The position numbers were made by a program, and so were the translations under genes. Positions 4,854 to 14,576 of a DNA stretch of 64,000 bases are shown piece by piece (position 1 is the first letter of the stretch; every line of letters begins with the position of its first letter). The notes under the pieces were generated by a model. That model did not search any database, was not told where the DNA came from, and saw only the letters and a list, made by a program, of their open reading frames with translations. This DNA is from Oceanobacillus caeni (GTDB lineage: Bacteria; Bacillota; Bacilli; Bacillales; Amphibacillaceae): positions 1-64,000 of the forward strand of contig NZ_JAHHXM010000018.1 of assembly GCF_019037185.1 (NCBI RefSeq), written 5' to 3'.

Positions 4854-4886
4854 GCCAGGAGGACAGGTCTATCCCTCTGGTTTTTA

Positions 4887-4945
4887 GAAAAAAGAAGTAA
4901 TTGCCCTCCCGCGACCAAAGTGTAGGGTAATTATTTCTTTTTTTC
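4887..4945. terminator. Terminator-like hairpin, member of a repeated family
   Basis: AAAGAAGTAATT (4891-4902) pairs with AATTATTTCTTT (4929-4940), followed by a T run. The loop contains GACCAAAGTGTAGGG. Very similar hairpins occur near 7287, 14241, 14436 and 51972, so this is a shared repeat as well as a likely cysK terminator. Confidence 0.75.
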
Positions 4946-5114
4946 ATCCAACATTCATTTTGGTTAATCAAAGGGAAATTAACCTATACGTTTTAAATGA
5001 AATAACAATCATTCATTGGAATATTTCCGAAAAACAAGAATAAGTTTATTAGAGAGGTTCTTCAGGATCATACATAACATCTCAATTTCTACTATTATTA
5101 AGGGGGAAATATTC

Positions 5115-6635
5115 TTGAGGTACAACAATCCAAACACAGAAGGTTCTATCCTTTCATTTAAAAAACGTTATGATAATTTTATTGGTGGTGAATACCGTGC
5201 ACCCGTGAAGGGGCAATACTTTGACAATGTCACTCCAGTAACTGGTGAAGTGTTTTGTGAAATTGCTCGTTCCACGAAAGAAGATGTTCAATTAGCAGTT
5301 GATGCGGCACACGCGGCGAAGGATGCATGGGCAAAGACGTCAGTTGCAGAAAGAGCAAATATACTAAATAAAATTGCTGATCGAATAGAAGAAAATAGGG
5401 AAGTTTTAGCAGTGGCTGAAACTTGGGATAATGGAAAAGCCGTTCGGGAAACACTTGCCGCAGATATCCCGCTTGCAGTTGATCATTTCCGCTATTTTGC
5501 TGGTGCTATCCGCGCGCAAGAAGGTGGCATCAGTCAAGTGGATAATGATACGGTTGCCTATCATTTCCATGAACCATTAGGAGTAGTTGGGCAGATTATT
5601 CCGTGGAATTTTCCATTGCTAATGGCAACTTGGAAACTAGCACCTGCATTAGCAGCTGGGAATTGTGTTGTTTTAAAACCAGCTGAACAAACTCCGGCAT
5701 CGATTCACGTTCTTCTAGACATTGTGAAAGATTTATTGCCGGCGGGAGTGGTTAATGTGGTGAATGGCTTTGGGGTAGAGGCCGGAAAACCACTTGCAAC
5801 GAATCCTGGTATTTCCAAAGTTGCCTTCACAGGGGAGACAACTACTGGAAGATTAATCATGCAATATGCTTCGGAAAATATTATTCCAGTAACTCTAGAA
5901 TTAGGTGGGAAATCGCCGAATATTTTCTTTGAAGATGTGATGGATAAGGATGATGGTTTCTTAGATAAAGCTATTGAAGGAATGGTCATGTTTGCCTTGA
6001 ACCAAGGGGAAGTTTGTACTTGTCCATCCCGTGCGCTTGTTCATGAATCTATTTATGACGCATTTATCGAAAGAGCAATCGAACGGGTAAACCAAATTAA
6101 AATTGGTCACCCACTTGATACAGAAACGATGATGGGAGCACAAGCATCAAATGAACAATTGGAAAAAATAAGCTCCTACTTAAGTATTGGAAAACAAGAA
6201 GGTGCGGAAGTCTTAGTTGGCGGAAATGTTAATAAATTAGAAGGAGAACTGGCAGGCGGATATTATGTAGAACCAACTATTTTTAAGGGCGATAACAAAA
6301 TGAGAATTTTCCAAGAAGAAATTTTTGGACCGGTTCTTTCTGTAACGACCTTCAAGGATAAAGAGGAAGCACTAGAAATCGCCAATGATACGTTATATGG
6401 ATTAGGAGCGGGGGTTTGGACGCGAGATATTAACACGGCATATCGTTTCGGTAGGGAGATTGAAGCCGGTCGTGTCTGGACAAATTGCTATCACCAATAC
6501 CCAGCACATGCTGCATTTGGCGGATATAAGAAATCTGGTATTGGAAGAGAAAATCATTTAATGATGCTAAGCCATTATCAACAAACGAAGAATTTATTGA
6601 TAAATTATAGTGAGACGGCAACTGGTTTATTTTAA
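5115..6635 (+). CDS. NAD-dependent aldehyde dehydrogenase, AldB/ExaC-type
   Basis: The product belongs to the acetaldehyde dehydrogenase branch of the ALDH superfamily. The cofactor-binding [17 protein letters not shown] motif, the general base Glu in LELGGKSP (about residue 262) and the catalytic Cys in [11 protein letters not shown] (about residue 301) are all present. I place the start at TTG 5115, with AAGGGGGAA just upstream, giving 506 residues, the family norm. The frame extends upstream to 5016, but that part resembles no ALDH. The next gene is DUF779, the usual neighbour of this enzyme in many bacteria, which suggests ethanol or acetaldehyde metabolism. Confidence 0.9.
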
Positions 6636-6784: not shown

Positions 6785-6811
6785 AAGCAGTAGTAAGTAA
6801 CGGATTTTGTC

Positions 6812-6853
6812 AAAGGAGCATTCATTCCATCGTGAAGGGTTGCTCCTTTTTTC
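6812..6853 (+). terminator. Hairpin between aldehyde dehydrogenase and DUF779 gene
   Basis: AAAGGAGCA (6812-6820) pairs with TGCTCCTTT (6841-6849) and a T run follows. It ends about 20 bp before the DUF779 start, so it may act as an attenuator or partial terminator inside the two-gene unit. Confidence 0.65.
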
Positions 6854-6872
6854 ATTAAAAAGGAGGCATCAT

Positions 6873-7232
6873 ATGGTTAAACGTGTCATTGCGACGGAAG
6901 AGGCTTTGAAATTGATTGACAAATTAAAAGATCTTCATGGGCCATTAATGTTTCATCAATCAGGAGGATGTTGTGATGGGAGTTCCCCGATGTGTTATCC
7001 AAGGGATGAGTTTCGTACAGGAGATTCAGACATCCTTTTAGGGGAAATTAGCGGCACACCATTTTTCATAGCTAAAGATCAATATGAGTATTGGAAGCAT
7101 ACGCAGCTTATTATTGATGTTGTCGATGGACGCGGGGGAATGTTTTCTCTGGAGGGTCCTGAAGGCAAACGATTTTTAACGAGGTCGCGGGTGTTTACGG
7201 GGGAGGAGAGGAAAGTACTGTTTAATCAATGA
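6873..7232 (+). CDS. DUF779 domain protein
   Basis: The 119-residue product matches the DUF779 family, with a conserved QSGGCCDGSSPMCYP motif rich in Cys and a DTxF-like segment later. The start at 6873 has AGGAGG seven bases upstream; the longer frame from 6807 runs through the preceding hairpin and is not used. Members usually sit next to an acetaldehyde dehydrogenase, as here. Their function is unknown; the paired Cys suggest metal or redox chemistry, which is inference. Confidence 0.85.
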   Translation: MVKRVIATEEALKLIDKLKDLHGPLMFHQSGGCCDGSSPMCYPRDEFRTGDSDILLGEISGTPFFIAKDQYEYWKHTQLIIDVVDGRGGMFSLEGPEGKRFLTRSRVFTGEERKVLFNQ

Positions 7233-7281
7233 AGAACAGGACTGACAGCAATTGTTGCGATTATCGCACAAGTCACCAATA

Positions 7282-7427
7282 GAAAAAAGAAGTAATCGCC
7301 CCCGCTAGGTCAAAGTGTAGGGTAATTACTTCTTTAAAACGAAACTTATATCTCTTACGTCAGCCGCTCTTCTTGCGGCATGTATGTTAACTTAGGCGGG
7401 TGTTCATAGCACCCGTCTTATTTTATT
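7282..7427. repeat. Structured multicopy repeat, copy R1 (three hairpins)
   Basis: The copy has three hairpins in order. The first is AAGAAGTAAT/ATTACTTCTT (7287-7333). The second sits in a conserved core at 7359-7388 with GCCGC/GCGGC arms. The third is GGCGGGTG/CACCCGTC (7395-7417), followed by a T-rich tail. Two further full copies lie near 14236-14365 and 14436-14576, so the pair of locations brackets the jet operon. No coding potential is seen. Confidence 0.75.
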
Positions 7428-7558
7428 TAACAAGAGATAATCCATTTCGAAAGTCGTAGTTGTAAAAACTCAATTACATAAATTTGTCAGTTCACACGAT
7501 GGAGGATAGCCCCCGTCTCTGTGATAAAATATACTAGGAAGTAGAGGGGGGAGAATGC

Positions 7559-8869
7559 TTGATTCCAAGTGAATGGAAAGAGTATTTAGAAGAGCACATT
7601 TTATTAAAAAATGAAGAACTTCATTTAATAGATATAAATGAAAACAACGGAAACGTGGATATCCCTGTTATCAGGAGAACTGCTAGAACAAGAAGAACAG
7701 TTGCTAGGTTAACCATCGGAATCGTTACTGATCATACGGTCTCACCACCTGAAAAACTAGTAAAAGCTTTTAGTAGTTCAAAGGTCAAGAAGCATTTGAC
7801 TCTATCAGATGAAACGTATGATTGGATTCGTAATGGTTGGTTGATCAGGGAATATCGCTTTGAAAAAGATGAGCGGACCTTGAAGAGTGAGCAATATCGA
7901 ATGGGTTATGGTCTTTTTCAATATCAACAGTTCATTCAAAAACAAAAGGAAGAAGAAAAAAAGCAGCTTATCCATGAATGGAAAACACGCTGGGAAGAAA
8001 CGAGGGGCACTGGTAAAGTGGAGGATGGGCTCCGCTTAGAATTACTAGACTTATTAGAAAATAGATTACAACTGATTGCCAATGAGGGACAACGGTTTTT
8101 AGAAGGCCAAGTTGATAAAATGGAAACAGTAAATCCTTCTTGGAGGTTTAGAAAGCAAGTCCTATTCTTACATTTCTTAGTAGCTTTGTACCAGATTGCT
8201 GCTATTGAATATCATTATGACTGGAAGCAAATTGGCGCTCGTTATTATCGGAAAATAGGAGGGTCAAAGGAATTTGACTCCTATAAAAAAGATTTCATTG
8301 AAGAGGCAGAACGATTTCTCGAACGTCCGTTACATTTGTTAGGTCTTGCTAGTTTGGGTACGATTACGCCGATATTTTTTTCCGGACCAATGAGTGGGAA
8401 AAAAGTAACGTACAGCTATGGGAGTGTTCACGCTACAACCGATTTAGCGGTTTTTACCGACAACTTTCAAACGAGTGCGGAAGTGTTGTGGTTGGTGGAG
8501 AATAGAGGCGTGTTAACGCGGATGGCCTATGAAGAAGAATTTTTACTAGATTCCAAGAGCTTTGTGTTAGGAATTGATGGGCAGTTGCGATCAGCACACC
8601 GACAATTGATTGGAAATCTCGTTCCCTTTGTGAAACAAGTAATTATCTGGACGGATGTCGATGAAGCGGGTTTAACGATTGCTAAGGAAATTTTCCAGCT
8701 GACTGAAAATGAGCAAGTCCTTACAAAGTGGGTGGTTCCACCGTTAGAGATCGTAACTGATATAGAGGAGTTTGAAATACGGTATAAACAGTCGATTCAA
8801 GCTGGGAAGGAAGAACAGGAACAAGAGATTGGAGGAGTGAGGTATTGGAAGAATTGGATAAAGCCTTAA
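7559..8869 (+). CDS. jetD: Wadjet-type JetD, Toprim/DUF2399-like nuclease subunit
   Basis: The 436-residue protein has an N-terminal arm with a long charged helix (about 125-150) and a C-terminal Toprim-like domain. The key residues are Glu in LVENRG (314) and the Asp pair in IIWTDVDEAG (366 and 368). This Glu plus DxD pattern is the metal site of topoisomerase VI-type Toprim folds and of JetD, the subunit that cleaves plasmid DNA in Wadjet systems. The start is TTG at 7559, with GAGGGGGGAGA upstream. It overlaps the next gene by 25 bp. It is the first gene of the operon, whereas in the best-known Wadjet loci jetD is last. Confidence 0.8.
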   Translation: MIPSEWKEYLEEHILLKNEELHLIDINENNGNVDIPVIRRTARTRRTVARLTIGIVTDHTVSPPEKLVKAFSSSKVKKHLTLSDETYDWIRNGWLIREYRFEKDERTLKSEQYRMGYGLFQYQQFIQKQKEEEKKQLIHEWKTRWEETRGTGKVEDGLRLELLDLLENRLQLIANEGQRFLEGQVDKMETVNPSWRFRKQVLFLHFLVALYQIAAIEYHYDWKQIGARYYRKIGGSKEFDSYKKDFIEEAERFLERPLHLLGLASLGTITPIFFSGPMSGKKVTYSYGSVHATTDLAVFTDNFQTSAEVLWLVENRGVLTRMAYEEEFLLDSKSFVLGIDGQLRSAHRQLIGNLVPFVKQVIIWTDVDEAGLTIAKEIFQLTENEQVLTKWVVPPLEIVTDIEEFEIRYKQSIQAGKEEQEQEIGGVRYWKNWIKP

Positions 8870-10269
8870 TTTCCATTTTTGATACAGATGGAGATAAGCC
8901 AGAGCTTCTTCAGTCCATGCGTGATATTGCGGCATTATCTGGCGTGTTGAGTGAACTAAGTGATAAGGAATATTTTCAATCGCCGATTCACGTCCTACGT
9001 TTTTTGCGAGTGTTAAATATTATTAATCAAGAGGCGCTTGGGATTACGGATCCAATCGAGAATGAGGAAACACTTTTTTATCGTTACCGTCATACGTTCG
9101 GTTATGACGAAGAGATGACAATCGGCTTCATAAAACACTTGACGTTTGTGTTGGGAAAATACAACTGGATTGCAAAAACGGGGAAGCGAATCAAGATGCG
9201 TGATGTTGGTAAGCGAATGATGGATGTCTTGATTCGGCTTGCTAATGATTCCCTTGCGTATTATTTGAATGATGATGTTCAACGATCGCTTTTCCAAGCA
9301 AAAAGAGATGCGGAGCTAAGTGAGGCTTATGATGATAAGGGCATTTCTGGTGGGAACAAACTAATGAGTATGATTAAAAATGTGGAGGAAGCGGTCTCGC
9401 TATTAACCGAAAGAGAGTTAGAGTATTTGTCCGATCGCAACGCATTGAACCAGGTAGAGGTTATCCATCAATTGATGAAAGAATTGGAAGTAAAAATGGT
9501 TGAAAGGCTTGCTAAATTTGAAACGCTAGACCAGGAACTTGTTTTTGCTACTGTGAAGCAAAGGGGAACAACAGCGATAAGTGAAGGAACAAAGATAAGT
9601 CTTGGGACGATAAACAAGATTCTTAAGTTTGCCCATCTGCAAGAGACAGATTTTATCAAGACAATCCATCCTGAACTCTTCCGGAATTTTATTGTGAAGT
9701 CATTTGATCCACCAATAGGTTCGGATATACCTAATGCTCATCAAATCCTTAGTTTTATGGAACAGGGACAATATGAGGATGAGGAATTGGATGGTATGTG
9801 GGTACCGGTCAAATTTGCTAGTCCCTTGCCGCCGGTGGCAATTGATGAGGGGATCGAGTATGTGGAGAACTATGAACCAATCACGGAGGAAATCGAAGAA
9901 ACGGTGGAAGAGGATTTTCCAGAATTAGAAGAAGTGATGGAGGATCAACTAGAAGAGCTTATGGGAGACTCAAGATGGCAAATGACGAAACAAATGATTC
10001 ATACCGAGCAGATTGAAAAATACCTCGATAACGTAGACGAAGCAGGACTAGATGAATTAGTAGTTCAGGCTGGATCTGATAAATGGAGTGACGTCTTAAA
10101 TGGTCTAATTGGTGTGTCTGCACTCATTGCTAATAAAAAGGCAGATATCGATGAGAAAGCAAATCGAAAATTAGATGACAATAAGACGGAGAGAGATTGG
10201 AGGTGGATAGAGGATGAACAAGGAACCTATGGAATTAGAAAACGAGGAAGAAGAGATTCAAAATATTAA
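8845..10269 (+). CDS. jetA: Wadjet-type JetA, MukF/MksF-like kleisin
   Basis: The protein has 474 residues and is largely alpha-helical, with a very acidic stretch at about 340-385. Its size and place before a small MukE-like gene and a large SMC-like gene point to the kleisin subunit (JetA, MksF/EptA type) that bridges the SMC heads. I recognise it mainly by context and length; no short catalytic motif is expected. The start is TTG at 8845 inside the end of jetD, with GGAGG ten bases upstream. Its own end overlaps jetB by 56 bp. Confidence 0.75.
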   Translation: MEELDKALISIFDTDGDKPELLQSMRDIAALSGVLSELSDKEYFQSPIHVLRFLRVLNIINQEALGITDPIENEETLFYRYRHTFGYDEEMTIGFIKHLTFVLGKYNWIAKTGKRIKMRDVGKRMMDVLIRLANDSLAYYLNDDVQRSLFQAKRDAELSEAYDDKGISGGNKLMSMIKNVEEAVSLLTERELEYLSDRNALNQVEVIHQLMKELEVKMVERLAKFETLDQELVFATVKQRGTTAISEGTKISLGTINKILKFAHLQETDFIKTIHPELFRNFIVKSFDPPIGSDIPNAHQILSFMEQGQYEDEELDGMWVPVKFASPLPPVAIDEGIEYVENYEPITEEIEETVEEDFPELEEVMEDQLEELMGDSRWQMTKQMIHTEQIEKYLDNVDEAGLDELVVQAGSDKWSDVLNGLIGVSALIANKKADIDEKANRKLDDNKTERDWRWIEDEQGTYGIRKRGRRDSKY

Positions 10270-10924
10270 TCCCTTGTCAGCCTTGCAGTCGATACAGGGG
10301 TTTTTGACAAAGGAAGAAGAGCTTGTCTTTATGCAAATCTTGTTTTCTTCTTCTGCTACCATCCGAACGGGGAACTTTGGTCTATCACGTAAGGAAGTGG
10401 AGAAATTACTTGGTATTACGAATGATGAGGAAGCTTTTGCTTCATTTATTAAACGGGTGAATCAAGGGCTTAGCCGTTATTTTAAGGTGATTTATGATGA
10501 GCGTAGAAACCAAGTTGTAGCGCTAATGCGAGTACCCGCAAAACAAGCGAGAAATGTCTTGAACAAGGAGAGCCTTGCGATTCTCATGTTTATTTTTTAT
10601 CACCAAGAGGTGTTGCAAAATGAATACACGCTTTTCTCACAATTGATTCATAGTTTTGGTCATGAATCTCTGCAGGTGACAAGGAAAATTCAAGCAAACT
10701 TAGATCCTTTGAAAAAAATTGGTGCAATTGAAGTTTATGATACGAATTCTGATGAAGAGGCGTATCAACTTACGGCTATTGGTGTACATATGTTCTCCGA
10801 TTCGTATTTGCGGCGGTATGCGGAATTTAGTCAGTCGAATCAGCTTCATATGGAAGACGTGTTACGGTTCTTTAAACGATACAACATGAACGGAGGTGTG
10901 GGTGATGATTCCATGGAGACTTAG
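10214..10924 (+). CDS. jetB: Wadjet-type JetB, MukE/MksE-like (DUF4194-like) subunit
   Basis: The 236-residue product lies between the kleisin and SMC genes and has the winged-helix character of MukE-like KITE proteins, which bind the kleisin and DNA. Stretches such as SIQGFLTKEEELVFMQILFSS and LNPLKKIGAIEVYD-like segments fit the JetB/DUF4194 group. It overlaps jetA by 56 bp and jetC by 20 bp, so subunits are made in coupled fashion. The ATG at 10214 follows GATAGAGG. The assignment to JetB rests on context plus these weak similarities. Confidence 0.75.
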   Translation: MNKEPMELENEEEEIQNINPLSALQSIQGFLTKEEELVFMQILFSSSATIRTGNFGLSRKEVEKLLGITNDEEAFASFIKRVNQGLSRYFKVIYDERRNQVVALMRVPAKQARNVLNKESLAILMFIFYHQEVLQNEYTLFSQLIHSFGHESLQVTRKIQANLDPLKKIGAIEVYDTNSDEEAYQLTAIGVHMFSDSYLRRYAEFSQSNQLHMEDVLRFFKRYNMNGGVGDDSMET

Positions 10925-13900
10925 ATTTTCTGGTATTCGTGATTATACCCCGACGGTTATGGATTTTTCAGATAAAGATGATCACATTCTCATTTCTGGA
11001 CCAAATGGTGCTGGTAAGTCAACCATTACTTTTTGTATGGGTGGGGTACTTTATTCTAGTAAGGTTGATTTAGAAGGATTAAAGTCTAATAATCTTCCAT
11101 CAGATCAAACATGGCGGGCAAAAATTGAACTGCTTTTCAAAAATGAAGGAAAGGTTAAGGTCGATGCCCCACAGTTCGTTCAATTTCGGTTAGATATTGA
11201 GCAAAAGCCAGGGGATCCAATTAAGAAGGAGTTTTACATTGAAGAGGGAGATGTGATGGACGAATGGGAGCGGTCAACGAAATTTTCTTCTGGTGGAAAT
11301 CTTAATTTTTCCGAATATAAAAACCAAGTGCTATATAAGTATGCGGTTGATCCTGATGAGTTTTATTTGATTTGGTATCAAAAAGAAGTGAATCAATTTG
11401 CGGTTATGCATCCCGAAGAGCGGTTCCGGATTTTTAGTGAAATGAATGGAATTGATAAGATCCAGAAAAATTGGGAGCAAAGTAAGGAGCTTGTGAAGGA
11501 AACGGAACAAAGCCTGCAAGATGCAGAGAGTAAACAAGGGCTTAACAAAATGCATCTGAAGCAAAAAAAGATGGAGCTCGATAGGTACCACGATCGGAAC
11601 CGTCGGCTTGAGGAAGGGTTTAAGCAATATTATCTTGGTTTGAAATGGTTGGAAAATTATCATCTGAAGCAAATTGATTCCTTAAAAGGCCAGATTGAGG
11701 AATTGATTGATACAAAGGAAGAAAAGATGGATGAGAAAAAAACACTAGTCATCCATCACGTTGAGCAAAAAGAGCAGCATGCAGAGTTTACGGAAATGCT
11801 TGGCTTGCTTGACGTGCGTAAACAGGAATTGGTGGATGAGTTAGAGGAGTCCAATCAAAAGTTAAAAGCAACGCAAGAAGAACTAGATGCCATCTCTGAT
11901 CAAATTGAAGAAATTACTAAAAAAGTAGACCGTATTGGCATGACAGAAGAGGAAGTTACTGAGGCGTTGAGTGAAGCGGAACAAACCTACGCTAAGTTGG
12001 ATGTCTCTGTTCGTGAAAAGGAAGAAATGAGTAAAAGCCTTGCGGAAACTTTAGACAAGTTAACACCACAATTGGCAAAATTGGAAGTGGAAATCGAGCA
12101 AGACAATGAGAAGCAAAAACAAGTGAGAGATCTAATTGAGACGTATCATAGTAGCGGTGCTGTTCAAGCGGAAATGGACAGGAACGAACGGAAGCTTGAT
12201 TCTAATAAAGATGAGCTACGTGAACTGGTAGGGAAAGAAAAAGCGTTATTTAAGGAACTAGAGTACCTCCGAAAAAATCAGGTATACAGCCCTCGCCAGG
12301 AGGAGTCGATTCATTACTTTGAAGAAAACAATATTAAAGTCTATCCGTTGCGTGAGCTTCTGGAGTTAGATGAGACGGCAAAACAAAGTGATGAGCAGTT
12401 ATTTGATACGATTAAATATACATTATTTGTTAACAAAAAAGTATTTCAAGCGCCAAATGACTTGTATCATGTCCCATTGCCAAACGTAATTCCCAAAAAG
12501 ACAATTACCCATCTTCCGGACAAACATATCAAGATTAAGGATAATTTAAGTGATAACCTTTATGTATTTGCCGTAAAAGCACTATGGTGGACGCAAACCT
12601 TTTTTACCAAAGAAATGCCTGTGATTGAAAAAGGGATGTTAATGGATCAACAGGGGATAAGAGGATCCCAAGAAGAAAATAAAATTATTTTAAGTGAAAA
12701 AGTGTTGCAAAGCCATCAGGTTAAGCTAGAACAAGAGCTTGGCACAATCGGGGATAAGATGGATCAACTTACGAAAGAAATTGATGAGTTAAATAATAGA
12801 AATTCGATATTGTTTAGTCGGCGCGAGTCACTGAAGGATGCTGAAGCATTTTTAACGAAAGAAAATGAAAGAGAATGGCGGAGAAACCAATTTGACAAGT
12901 TAAATAGTGAAAAGAGTACCATTCTAGAGGAGCAATATACGATTCAGTCTAAAATAAATAGGCTTAATACGTCGCTTGCTGAATGGAAGCAGAAGGTTTC
13001 AACCTATAAGGAATTTCAGGCAACGTATGTTCAGTTTCAAAAAGAACAAGCAAAAGTTGCTAAAGTGCAAAAATTAAAAGGTTTGGTAGCTGAGCTAAAA
13101 CAAGATAAAAAAGAGAAAAACAATCAGTTAAATGAACTGGAAGATTTACTAGATGAGAAGAGACGTGAAGAGAGACGGTTAGCAAGAGATTTGGAGGATT
13201 TGGAAGATAAAGTTATCTATCAAGACCGTGAGATTGAACAAATAGAGAGACAAATAAGGAATAAGTCTGATGAGCGGGTAACGAGTGAAGAGGCCTATTC
13301 TAGAACAAGGAAAGAAGTAATAAGGCTACAGGAAACTGCACAACGGCTAATCGAGAAGTTTGAGGAAGAGGCGGAACAGTTACCTGAAACAACAAAGCCA
13401 CAAGCAGAGGAAATGCGAGACCTTGGAAAGACGAAATATGACAACGCGGTGAATGAAACAGGTATTGATGAAGCTGCACCGGAGAATTACAAGAAGATGA
13501 AAGAGGAATACGATCGGTCCGAAAATGAAGTGAAAAAATCAAAACTTTTATTGGAAGAATATACGGATAGAATGGAACGGCTTAAAGAAGATTTAGAAGA
13601 TACCATTAACATGAAAATAATTGGTGTGAATCAAAAGTTTGTTCATTATATGTCCATGTTCGGATTTGAAGGGAAAATTGAGTGGGACATGAACACCGAT
13701 CGACGTGGCCGAATTCGGTACACCCTATTCATTAAAGCGCGGAAAGAAGGCCACCGTGGAAAATTAGAAGATGTGAGTGTGAAAGCACGAGGAGGAAAAG
13801 TTGGAAAAGGTGTATCTGGTGGAGAGGAATCTCTTAGTTCCTTATTGTTTGCTCTAGCCTTGCTACAAACAATCGAAGCATCTCCGGGCTATATTGTTCT

Positions 13901-14108
13901 AGACGAGTTTGATAGTGCACTTGATGAGGGAAGAAAGGATAAAGTGTTTGAATTATATGAGCAGGAATTGAAGCGGAAAATGATTATTCTTACACCGAAG
14001 TCACATGAAGAGGAGTACCTTTATCGCTTTTCTAAAGCATATGTGGTGCACCATAACCCGAATATACCAAAAAGTACAGTATTTAAGGTTATGCGAGTTA
14101 ATGAATGA
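10905..14108 (+). CDS. jetC: Wadjet-type JetC, SMC/MukB-like ATPase
   Basis: This 1067-residue SMC-type ATPase has Walker A GPNGAGKST at residues 32-40, long coiled coils at roughly 170-430 and 620-870 around a hinge near 450-600, then the ABC signature GVSGGEESLSS (about 968) and Walker B GYIVLDEFDSALDE (about 996). It is the motor that extrudes plasmid DNA and hands it to JetD in Wadjet systems. The ATG at 10905 is chosen because GGAGG at 10892-10896 gives normal spacing; GTG codons at 10896 and 10902 are alternatives. It is the last gene of the operon. All ATPase motifs look intact. Confidence 0.88.
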   Translation: MIPWRLRFSGIRDYTPTVMDFSDKDDHILISGPNGAGKSTITFCMGGVLYSSKVDLEGLKSNNLPSDQTWRAKIELLFKNEGKVKVDAPQFVQFRLDIEQKPGDPIKKEFYIEEGDVMDEWERSTKFSSGGNLNFSEYKNQVLYKYAVDPDEFYLIWYQKEVNQFAVMHPEERFRIFSEMNGIDKIQKNWEQSKELVKETEQSLQDAESKQGLNKMHLKQKKMELDRYHDRNRRLEEGFKQYYLGLKWLENYHLKQIDSLKGQIEELIDTKEEKMDEKKTLVIHHVEQKEQHAEFTEMLGLLDVRKQELVDELEESNQKLKATQEELDAISDQIEEITKKVDRIGMTEEEVTEALSEAEQTYAKLDVSVREKEEMSKSLAETLDKLTPQLAKLEVEIEQDNEKQKQVRDLIETYHSSGAVQAEMDRNERKLDSNKDELRELVGKEKALFKELEYLRKNQVYSPRQEESIHYFEENNIKVYPLRELLELDETAKQSDEQLFDTIKYTLFVNKKVFQAPNDLYHVPLPNVIPKKTITHLPDKHIKIKDNLSDNLYVFAVKALWWTQTFFTKEMPVIEKGMLMDQQGIRGSQEENKIILSEKVLQSHQVKLEQELGTIGDKMDQLTKEIDELNNRNSILFSRRESLKDAEAFLTKENEREWRRNQFDKLNSEKSTILEEQYTIQSKINRLNTSLAEWKQKVSTYKEFQATYVQFQKEQAKVAKVQKLKGLVAELKQDKKEKNNQLNELEDLLDEKRREERRLARDLEDLEDKVIYQDREIEQIERQIRNKSDERVTSEEAYSRTRKEVIRLQETAQRLIEKFEEEAEQLPETTKPQAEEMRDLGKTKYDNAVNETGIDEAAPENYKKMKEEYDRSENEVKKSKLLLEEYTDRMERLKEDLEDTINMKIIGVNQKFVHYMSMFGFEGKIEWDMNTDRRGRIRYTLFIKARKEGHRGKLEDVSVKARGGKVGKGVSGGEESLSSLLFALALLQTIEASPGYIVLDEFDSALDEGRKDKVFELYEQELKRKMIILTPKSHEEEYLYRFSKAYVVHHNPNIPKSTVFKVMRVNE

Positions 14109-14235
14109 GATGCAGGGACAGGTCCCACTCATGTCAAATAGATACATGGTGGTGTTCGTAAAGTGGAGTCCTTCTTTTCACAAGGAAATGGAGTATGTTT
14201 TATTTGGAAAAGAAAGTATCCTTTGTGATCACCAT

Positions 14236-14365
14236 AGAAAGAAAAAAGTAACTGCCCAGCCCCGACCAAAGGTAAATGGGTAGTTACTTTTTTGAAACTT
14301 ATATCTAAGGTCAGCCGCTCTTCTTTGCGGCATGTATGTTGCTAAAGAGGGTGTTCATAGCACAA
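14236..14365. repeat. Structured multicopy repeat, copy R2
   Basis: It has the same order as copy R1: a long hairpin with GTAACT/AGTTAC arms, the core with GCCGC/GCGGC at 14309-14341, and a GGGTGTTCATAGCAC motif. The third stem is weaker than in the other copies. It begins about 130 bp after jetC. Confidence 0.7.
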
Positions 14366-14435: not shown

Positions 14436-14576
14436 AAGAAAAAAGTAACCGTCCTCCCTAGTCCAAAGGTTAGATTGGCTACTTTTAAATAAAACTTCAA
14501 TACTTTAGGTCAGCCGCTCTTCATGCGGCATGTATGTTGCCTAGTCAGAGTGTTAGCAGCGCTCTGACTATTTTTA
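14436..14576. repeat. Structured multicopy repeat, copy R3
   Basis: The core GGTCAGCCGCTC...GCGGCATGTATGTTG is at 14508-14539. The third hairpin here is AGTCAGAG/CTCTGACT (14543-14569) with ATTTTT after it. In R1 the same position is paired by different bases, so pairing is kept while sequence changes, a sign of selected RNA or DNA structure. Confidence 0.72.

What the first reader, a model, noticed from the sequence alone, without database searches (positions are those of the whole stretch)
7559..14108. Wadjet-type defence operon with the nuclease gene first (jetD-A-B-C)
Four overlapping genes encode a Toprim-like protein with Glu314, Asp366 and Asp368, a kleisin-like protein, a MukE-like protein and an SMC ATPase with intact Walker A, signature and Walker B. 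Known Wadjet/MksBEFG/Ept systems cleave invading plasmids. The best-studied loci end with jetD; here it leads. The JetD looks closer to DUF2399-like than to the DUF3322/DUF2220 form. It may represent a less-studied subtype.
Basis: partly seen in the sequence, partly recalled or inferred. Interest (0 to 1): 0.8.

Follow-up and report, generated by a model that had tools for sequence, protein, structure and literature searches.

The report
Wadjet anti-plasmid operon, compact type III
This is a four-gene bacterial defence operon that very probably cuts small incoming plasmids; it belongs to an already catalogued class (Wadjet type III), but to a short, rarely found branch that looks separate from the rest of that class.

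Summary
Four overlapping genes at 7559-14108 match PADLOC Wadjet type III profiles over nearly full length: JetD3 (E 9.6e-180), JetA3 (2e-243), JetB3 (1.3e-123), JetC3 (E 0). The Toprim residues E314, D366 and D368 are invariant in 36 of 36 JetDs from types I, II, long III and this group.

Nuclease-first was the usual order in the type III loci I examined: 13 of 14 long-JetC loci and 12 of 13 compact loci, window included. Types I and II had D last in 5 of 5 each.

What is left is classification. PADLOC's type III holds a common long form (JetC about 1,480 aa) and this rare compact form (about 1,070 aa). JetC-head trees with Smc outgroups place the compact form outside I+II+long III (support 100) and reject compact+long (AU p 0.002-0.015); JetD agrees weakly. 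Without an outgroup the placement is unresolved. I found no report of this split, but the discovery paper was not held. The mechanism (loop extrusion, then cutting of circles) is inferred from type I.

The parts
7559..8869 (+). jetD: Toprim nuclease, 436 aa, TTG start; N-terminal part about 1-150, topo VI-A-like stretch from about 156, Toprim about 300-436; E314, D366, D368, Q420-E421
8845..10269 (+). jetA: kleisin (MukF-like), 474 aa, TTG start
10214..10924 (+). jetB: MukE/KITE-like subunit, 236 aa
   Evidence: PADLOC PDLC00570 JetB3 E 1.3e-123; KITE fold not tested by a model
10905..14108 (+). jetC: SMC ATPase, 1067 aa from the conserved ATG (1070 aa from GTG 10896); Walker A, signature and Walker B intact
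   Evidence: PADLOC PDLC00580 JetC3 1452.6 bits; Pfam AAA_23 50.3 bits; alignment A4
7275..7430 (+). flanking repeat upstream of jetD: start-less 3' remnant of a holin-like-toxin-type (Hol_Tox) gene with a three-hairpin RNA tail ending in a terminator-like stem; not part of the Wadjet machine
14234..14363 (+). flanking repeat, same family, downstream of jetC
14436..14575 (+). flanking repeat, same family, second downstream copy with terminator-like stem 14542-14570

Best explanation
A chromosomal Wadjet (JetABCD) anti-plasmid operon of the compact, nuclease-first kind that PADLOC files under type III. JetC, JetA and JetB form an SMC motor that loads on DNA and extrudes loops with ATP. When a small circular DNA has been fully reeled in, the stalled motor activates the JetD dimer, whose Toprim site (E314, D366, D368) cuts the plasmid. 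Shown here: gene set, family membership by profile, intact ATPase and Toprim motifs, JetD's Toprim/topo VI-A-like fold in a predicted model, gene order in relatives. Inferred from type I work: loop extrusion, sensing of circularity and size, cleavage, plasmid restriction. Inferred from sequence: translational coupling in the order D-A-B-C.
Against: No activity data. The JetA model is poor (pLDDT 55.3), and five rows that are not MukF rank above its best MukF match. The JetD model had no Foldseek match at E <= 0.001; in the second look MksG ranks first but is tied, within 1 Z, with topo VI-A, reverse gyrase, topoisomerase I and a small Toprim protein, so the fold says Toprim rather than JetD. 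The middle segment of JetC where a hinge should lie matches no Pfam family and no segment of type I, II or long III JetC by hhalign.
Confidence: 0.88

Rival explanations
1. A chromosome-organising MukBEF/MksBEF-like condensin that has kept a Toprim protein for another purpose, such as decatenation or repair, rather than plasmid defence.
For: SMC, MukF-like and MukE-like subunits occur in both groups; PMC7617805 (passages) notes Wadjet-group members such as MukBEF that fold chromosomes and lack JetD.
Against: The genome also has an ordinary Smc (L119). The nuclease gene is present in 13 of 13 compact loci counted, L002's JetC being cut by its contig end and a lone 74-aa JetD fragment (L063) left out. 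The acidic triad is invariant. The operon is patchy (6 of 58 genomes, own included and one of the six a fragment), unlike a housekeeping condensin.
Confidence: 0.06
2. An anti-phage or conjugation-blocking SMC nuclease with a target other than small circles (linear or replicating phage DNA).
For: PMC10586767 (passage) says most work is on type I and that type II/III may recognise different substrates. JetC here also matches mad3 (E 5e-13) and LmuB (E 1.4e-12) profiles.
Against: The far stronger match is JetC3 (1452.6 bits against under 50), and no other effector domain was seen in JetD.
Confidence: 0.06
3. A decaying, non-functional operon.
For: Flanking toxin-gene remnants show that the region accumulates debris.
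Against: Four intact frames, intact motifs, and high identity to the nearest relative (JetA 93%, JetB 96%, JetC 88%, JetD 87%).
Confidence: 0.03

Closest known systems
PADLOC Wadjet type III, compact profiles PDLC00590/00559/00570/00580
   Same: All four window proteins match over nearly full length; same order in 12 of 13 loci, window included.
   Different: Nothing found that separates the window operon from these profiles.
PADLOC Wadjet type III, long form (profiles such as PDLC00592, 00562, 00576, 00583)
   Same: Nuclease-first order in 13 of 14 loci; Toprim motif; weak match of the window JetC to long JetC3 profiles (best E 1.4e-5).
   Different: JetC 1462-1513 aa against 1067-1116; JetD 341-397 aa and over the JetD_C (PF09983) cut-off in the two tested, while the window JetD has no PF09983 match; window JetA, JetB and JetD matched no long-form profile, and the JetA, JetB and JetD tested from three long loci matched no compact one; JetC trees reject grouping.
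Wadjet type I (JetABCD / MksBEFG / EptABCD)
   Same: Same subunit types; JetC size similar (1122-1216 aa); a GSKxF stretch of JetD shared by eye with type I L110.
   Different: D last in 5 of 5 loci; JetA/JetB not matched by hhalign.
Wadjet type II
   Same: Subunit types; DUF2399 in JetD (126 bits in L101, below cut-off here).
   Different: D last in 5 of 5; JetC 1378-1404 aa and JetB 387-447 aa.
Topoisomerase VI A subunit / Spo11
   Same: Aligned over JetD model residues about 156-436 (rmsd 13-16); profile hit 1d3y E 0.0078.
   Different: Operon with an SMC motor; no topo VI-B gene seen beside it.

Membership tests
Wadjet (JetABCD) | Adjacent jetA, jetB, jetC and jetD genes | tested here: met
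Wadjet (JetABCD) | JetD with Toprim acidic residues and a JetD/topo VI-A-like fold | tested here: met
   Residues. Fold: (MksG and topo VI-A top rows, tied with other Toprim proteins); Foldseek alone gave no match at E <= 0.001
Wadjet (JetABCD) | JetC SMC ATPase with Walker A, signature and Walker B | tested here: met
Wadjet (JetABCD) | JetA is a kleisin | tested here: inconclusive
   Profile JetA3 met; structural match to MukF rests on a low-confidence model and is not the top match
Wadjet (JetABCD) | JetB is a KITE protein | tested here: inconclusive
   Profile JetB3 met; PDB profile search gave only weak winged-helix hits (best E 0.12)
Wadjet (JetABCD) | Restricts plasmid transformation by cutting circular DNA | not testable with these tools
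   needs an experiment
Wadjet type III (as defined by PADLOC) | Best matches are type III profiles for all four subunits | tested here: met
Wadjet type III (as defined by PADLOC) | Nuclease-first order D-A-B-C (empirical, from this sample) | tested here: met
Wadjet type III, long form | Long JetC of about 1460-1510 aa (empirical, from this sample) | tested here: not met
   1070 aa against 1462-1513
Wadjet type III, long form | JetC head and JetD group with the long form | tested here: not met
   JetC AU p 0.002-0.015 against grouping, with Smc outgroups; without outgroup unresolved. JetD AU p 0.039, but KH 0.105 and SH 0.118 do not reject
Wadjet type III | Hinge without channel (reported in PMC12647877, passage) | tested here: inconclusive
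   no hinge family recognised

The most novel reading that the evidence does not exclude
The compact nuclease-first operons are a fourth deep lineage of Wadjet, branching before types I, II and long III, so that 'type III' joins two unrelated groups by gene order, and the nuclease-first order is either ancestral or arose twice. A short-armed SMC with no recognisable hinge family would make it a natural test of what the SMC arm and hinge are for.
Probability: 0.45. Interest if true: 0.5.

Novelty: new member of a known kind. Interest (0 to 1): 0.38.

Why it matters
PMC10586767 (passage) says most Wadjet research has been on type I and that characterising types II and III will show any mechanistic differences. 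PMC12647877 (passages) ties the hinge channel to obstacle bypass, says Wadjet-II and -III lack the channel, and notes that such channel-less SMCs tend to have longer arms except for a few Wadjet-III cases; the short JetC here may be one of those. If the compact form is a separate lineage, results on 'type III' should not be carried between the two forms, and databases should split them.

Tried and rejected
Rejected: that D-first is peculiar to this genome. Looked for mobile carriers: JetA had no match in 72,556 plasmid records or 50,697 phage records, and no confirmed relative in viral contigs (75 stretches matched a pattern, 0 confirmed). Only JetA was used for these three.

Tried without use: phmmer of JetD against PDB sequences (one chance hit); JetA and JetB profiles against PDB sequences (no clear relatives); Rfam on the window (none at gathering threshold); Foldseek on JetD (best E 1.3e-3, a primase); the JetC middle segment by hhalign and Pfam; a C10 bootstrap tree (timed out; replaced by AU tests on trees found with LG+G4). 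hhalign negatives for JetA and JetB do not discriminate, since types I and II also fail to match each other there; only the JetD long-compact failure stands out (0.2%, the five other JetD pairs 91-96%). Against separation: JetC long-compact scored 99.2% in hhalign, but over columns that are mostly coiled coil. Papers not held: PMC6387622 and the type II structure paper. Searches for a fourth type: 0 papers; 32 papers, 15 listed; none names one in its title or the abstract start shown.

Full report
What is there. The window holds four + strand genes at 7559-8869, 8845-10269, 10214-10924 and 10896-14108 that overlap by 25, 56 and 29 nt. The JetC start is more likely ATG 10905, the first residue conserved in relatives. 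SD-like GGAGG stretches precede jetA, jetB and jetC inside the preceding gene, which suggests translational coupling. A terminator-like stem lies upstream of jetD (7394-7418) and one downstream of jetC (14542-14570) (consensus matches only, 8 found in the region against 5.2 expected).

Family. PADLOC profiles give JetD3 (E 9.6e-180, residues 1-435 of 436), JetA3 (2e-243), JetB3 (1.3e-123) and JetC3 (1452.6 bits). Pfam sees a Toprim/DUF2399 stretch in JetD just below its cut-offs and an AAA_23 head in JetC. NCBIfam gave no match near its cut-off for JetD or JetA and none for JetB. The PF09983 (JetD_C) search found nothing in the whole own genome.

Gene order. Compact loci: 12 of 13 distinct loci are D-A-B-C (window, L001-L008, L057, L061, L062; L002's JetC runs off its contig), and one deep relative, L058, is A-B-C with a convergent D. 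L064 and L065 repeat L001 and L007 (same identities and contig lengths) and were not counted; L063 (a 74-aa JetD fragment), L059 and L060 (weak JetD matches in other surroundings) were dropped. Long type III: 13 of 14 loci fetched are D-A-B-C; one (L056) has A-B-C with no D identified (two downstream frames tested, two upstream ones not). These 14 come from the 78 genomes with a match, nearly all from its strongest. Type I: 5 of 5 fetched, of 37 genomes with hits, are D-last; type II: 5 of 5, of 28. In types I and II, A and B were checked by profile in two operons each (L106, L108, L101, L104); in the others they are inferred from size and place. L103's JetC seems split into two frames, L109 and L110 have an extra frame between B and C, and L052 (long III) has an opposite-strand frame between A and B.

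Two kinds under one name. The long-JetC profile rang in 78 of 299 sampled genomes of the phylum at E <= 0.001, many of them weak coiled-coil matches. The compact JetD profile rang in 5 of 398 counting the own genome; only the own genome and G433 were full-length matches there, G398 (the L058 operon) matched in two pieces. Among 58 relatives it rang in 6 including the own genome: 3 of 27 other same-genus genomes, one same-family genome and one fragment. The window JetA, JetB and JetD matched no long-form profile; JetC matched long JetC3 profiles weakly (best E 1.4e-5), less well than one JetC2 profile (9.4e-8). JetA, JetB and JetD of L051 and L055, and JetA and JetB of L056, matched no compact profile. 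JetC-head trees: with one Smc outgroup, 36 sequences and 390 columns, the four Jet groups are monophyletic (99-100) and I+II+long III form a clade of support 100 without the compact group. With 14 Smc, 49 sequences and 365 columns, the split {I, II, long} is again 100. AU tests reject compact+long at p 0.0046, 0.0042, 0.0147 with LG+C10+G4 and 0.0020 with Q.pfam+F+R4, the last two on trees found with LG+G4. Compact+II (0.031-0.036) and compact+I (0.009-0.043) are rejected less strongly, and SH does not reject compact+II under Q.pfam (0.054). Against this: without an outgroup the placement is unresolved (II+compact, support 34), the Smc branch is long, and sampling of types I and II is thin. 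JetD, 36 sequences, 172 columns: I+compact 79; AU rejects long+compact at 0.039, but KH (0.105) and SH (0.118) do not, and II+compact is allowed (0.271).

Setting. Upstream lie an aldehyde dehydrogenase (5016-6635) and a small DUF779-like gene (6807-7232; names recalled, not searched), kept in order in the nearest relative L001 (95.7% and 91.4% identity). In 5 relatives, none of which had a JetD3 match, the same pair is followed by other genes. L001 has the operon at the same place but a different right flank. Base composition of the operon is that of its surroundings (GC 0.37-0.42 over 1-24000).

Flanking repeats. Copies of a dispersed repeat lie at 7275-7430, 14234-14363, 14436-14575 and partly at 4885-4940; 15 of 58 genomes, own included, have matches. 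Of three peptides tested, one from a relative matches Hol_Tox (PF16935) at 34.4 bits against a cut-off of 23.3, a second reaches 19.3, and the one from the window matches nothing. The window's upstream copy folds with z -5.56, has no start codon, and Rfam has nothing at gathering level. They look like neighbourhood debris, not part of Wadjet.

Literature. PMC10586767 (passages): types I-III by sequence and operon organisation, most work on type I. PMC12647877 (passages): three types differ in operon organisation; Wadjet-III lacks a hinge channel; long arms except in a few Wadjet-III cases. PMC10123090 (passages): mksFEBG order, MksG nuclease. PMC7617805 (passages and the phylogeny section): a Wadjet-group tree exists in its Data S1, which I could not read, so the compact branch may already be drawn there. 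PMC8954581 and PMC10740426 (passages): type III reported in Weizmannia coagulans and Bacillus cereus. PMC12287153, PMC12786226 and PMC9252829 (passages) added nothing on type III order. Searches found no fourth type. The 2018 discovery paper was not held, so whether its tested type III was compact or long is unknown to me.

Verdict. An apparently intact, ordinary member of a catalogued defence class, with a modest and open question about how that class should be divided.

Noticed in passing
window 7275-7430, 14234-14363, 14436-14575, 4885-4940: Dispersed Hol_Tox-type toxin-gene remnants with a conserved three-hairpin RNA tail flank the operon; no Rfam match at gathering level; related copies in 15 of 58 genomes searched, own included.
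   Followed up: partly
L058:478-7556: A deep relative of the compact form has A-B-C with a convergent jetD after jetC, so the nuclease gene has changed place within this lineage.
   Followed up: partly
L060:570-6673: A Wadjet-like operon with a 960-aa SMC and a type I-like JetD whose first two proteins match no PADLOC profile at E <= 0.001; the same genome has a long type III JetC on another contig.
   Followed up: no
L059:3498-6268: A JetD-like 364-aa protein (weak JetD3 match) in a run of three genes, with no frame over 850 aa in the 14 kb fetched.
   Followed up: no
L063:6199-6423: A 74-aa JetD fragment, apparently a remnant of a lost compact operon.
   Followed up: no
L002: A 5.8-kb contig of a Paracaedibacteraceae MAG encodes an operon 59-85% identical to the window's, as close as the Bacillaceae ones; probably a misbinned contig.
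   Followed up: no
window 7559-14108 against L001-L008: JetA and JetB are more conserved (78-96%) than JetC (65-88%) and JetD (58-87%) among these eight loci.
   Followed up: no
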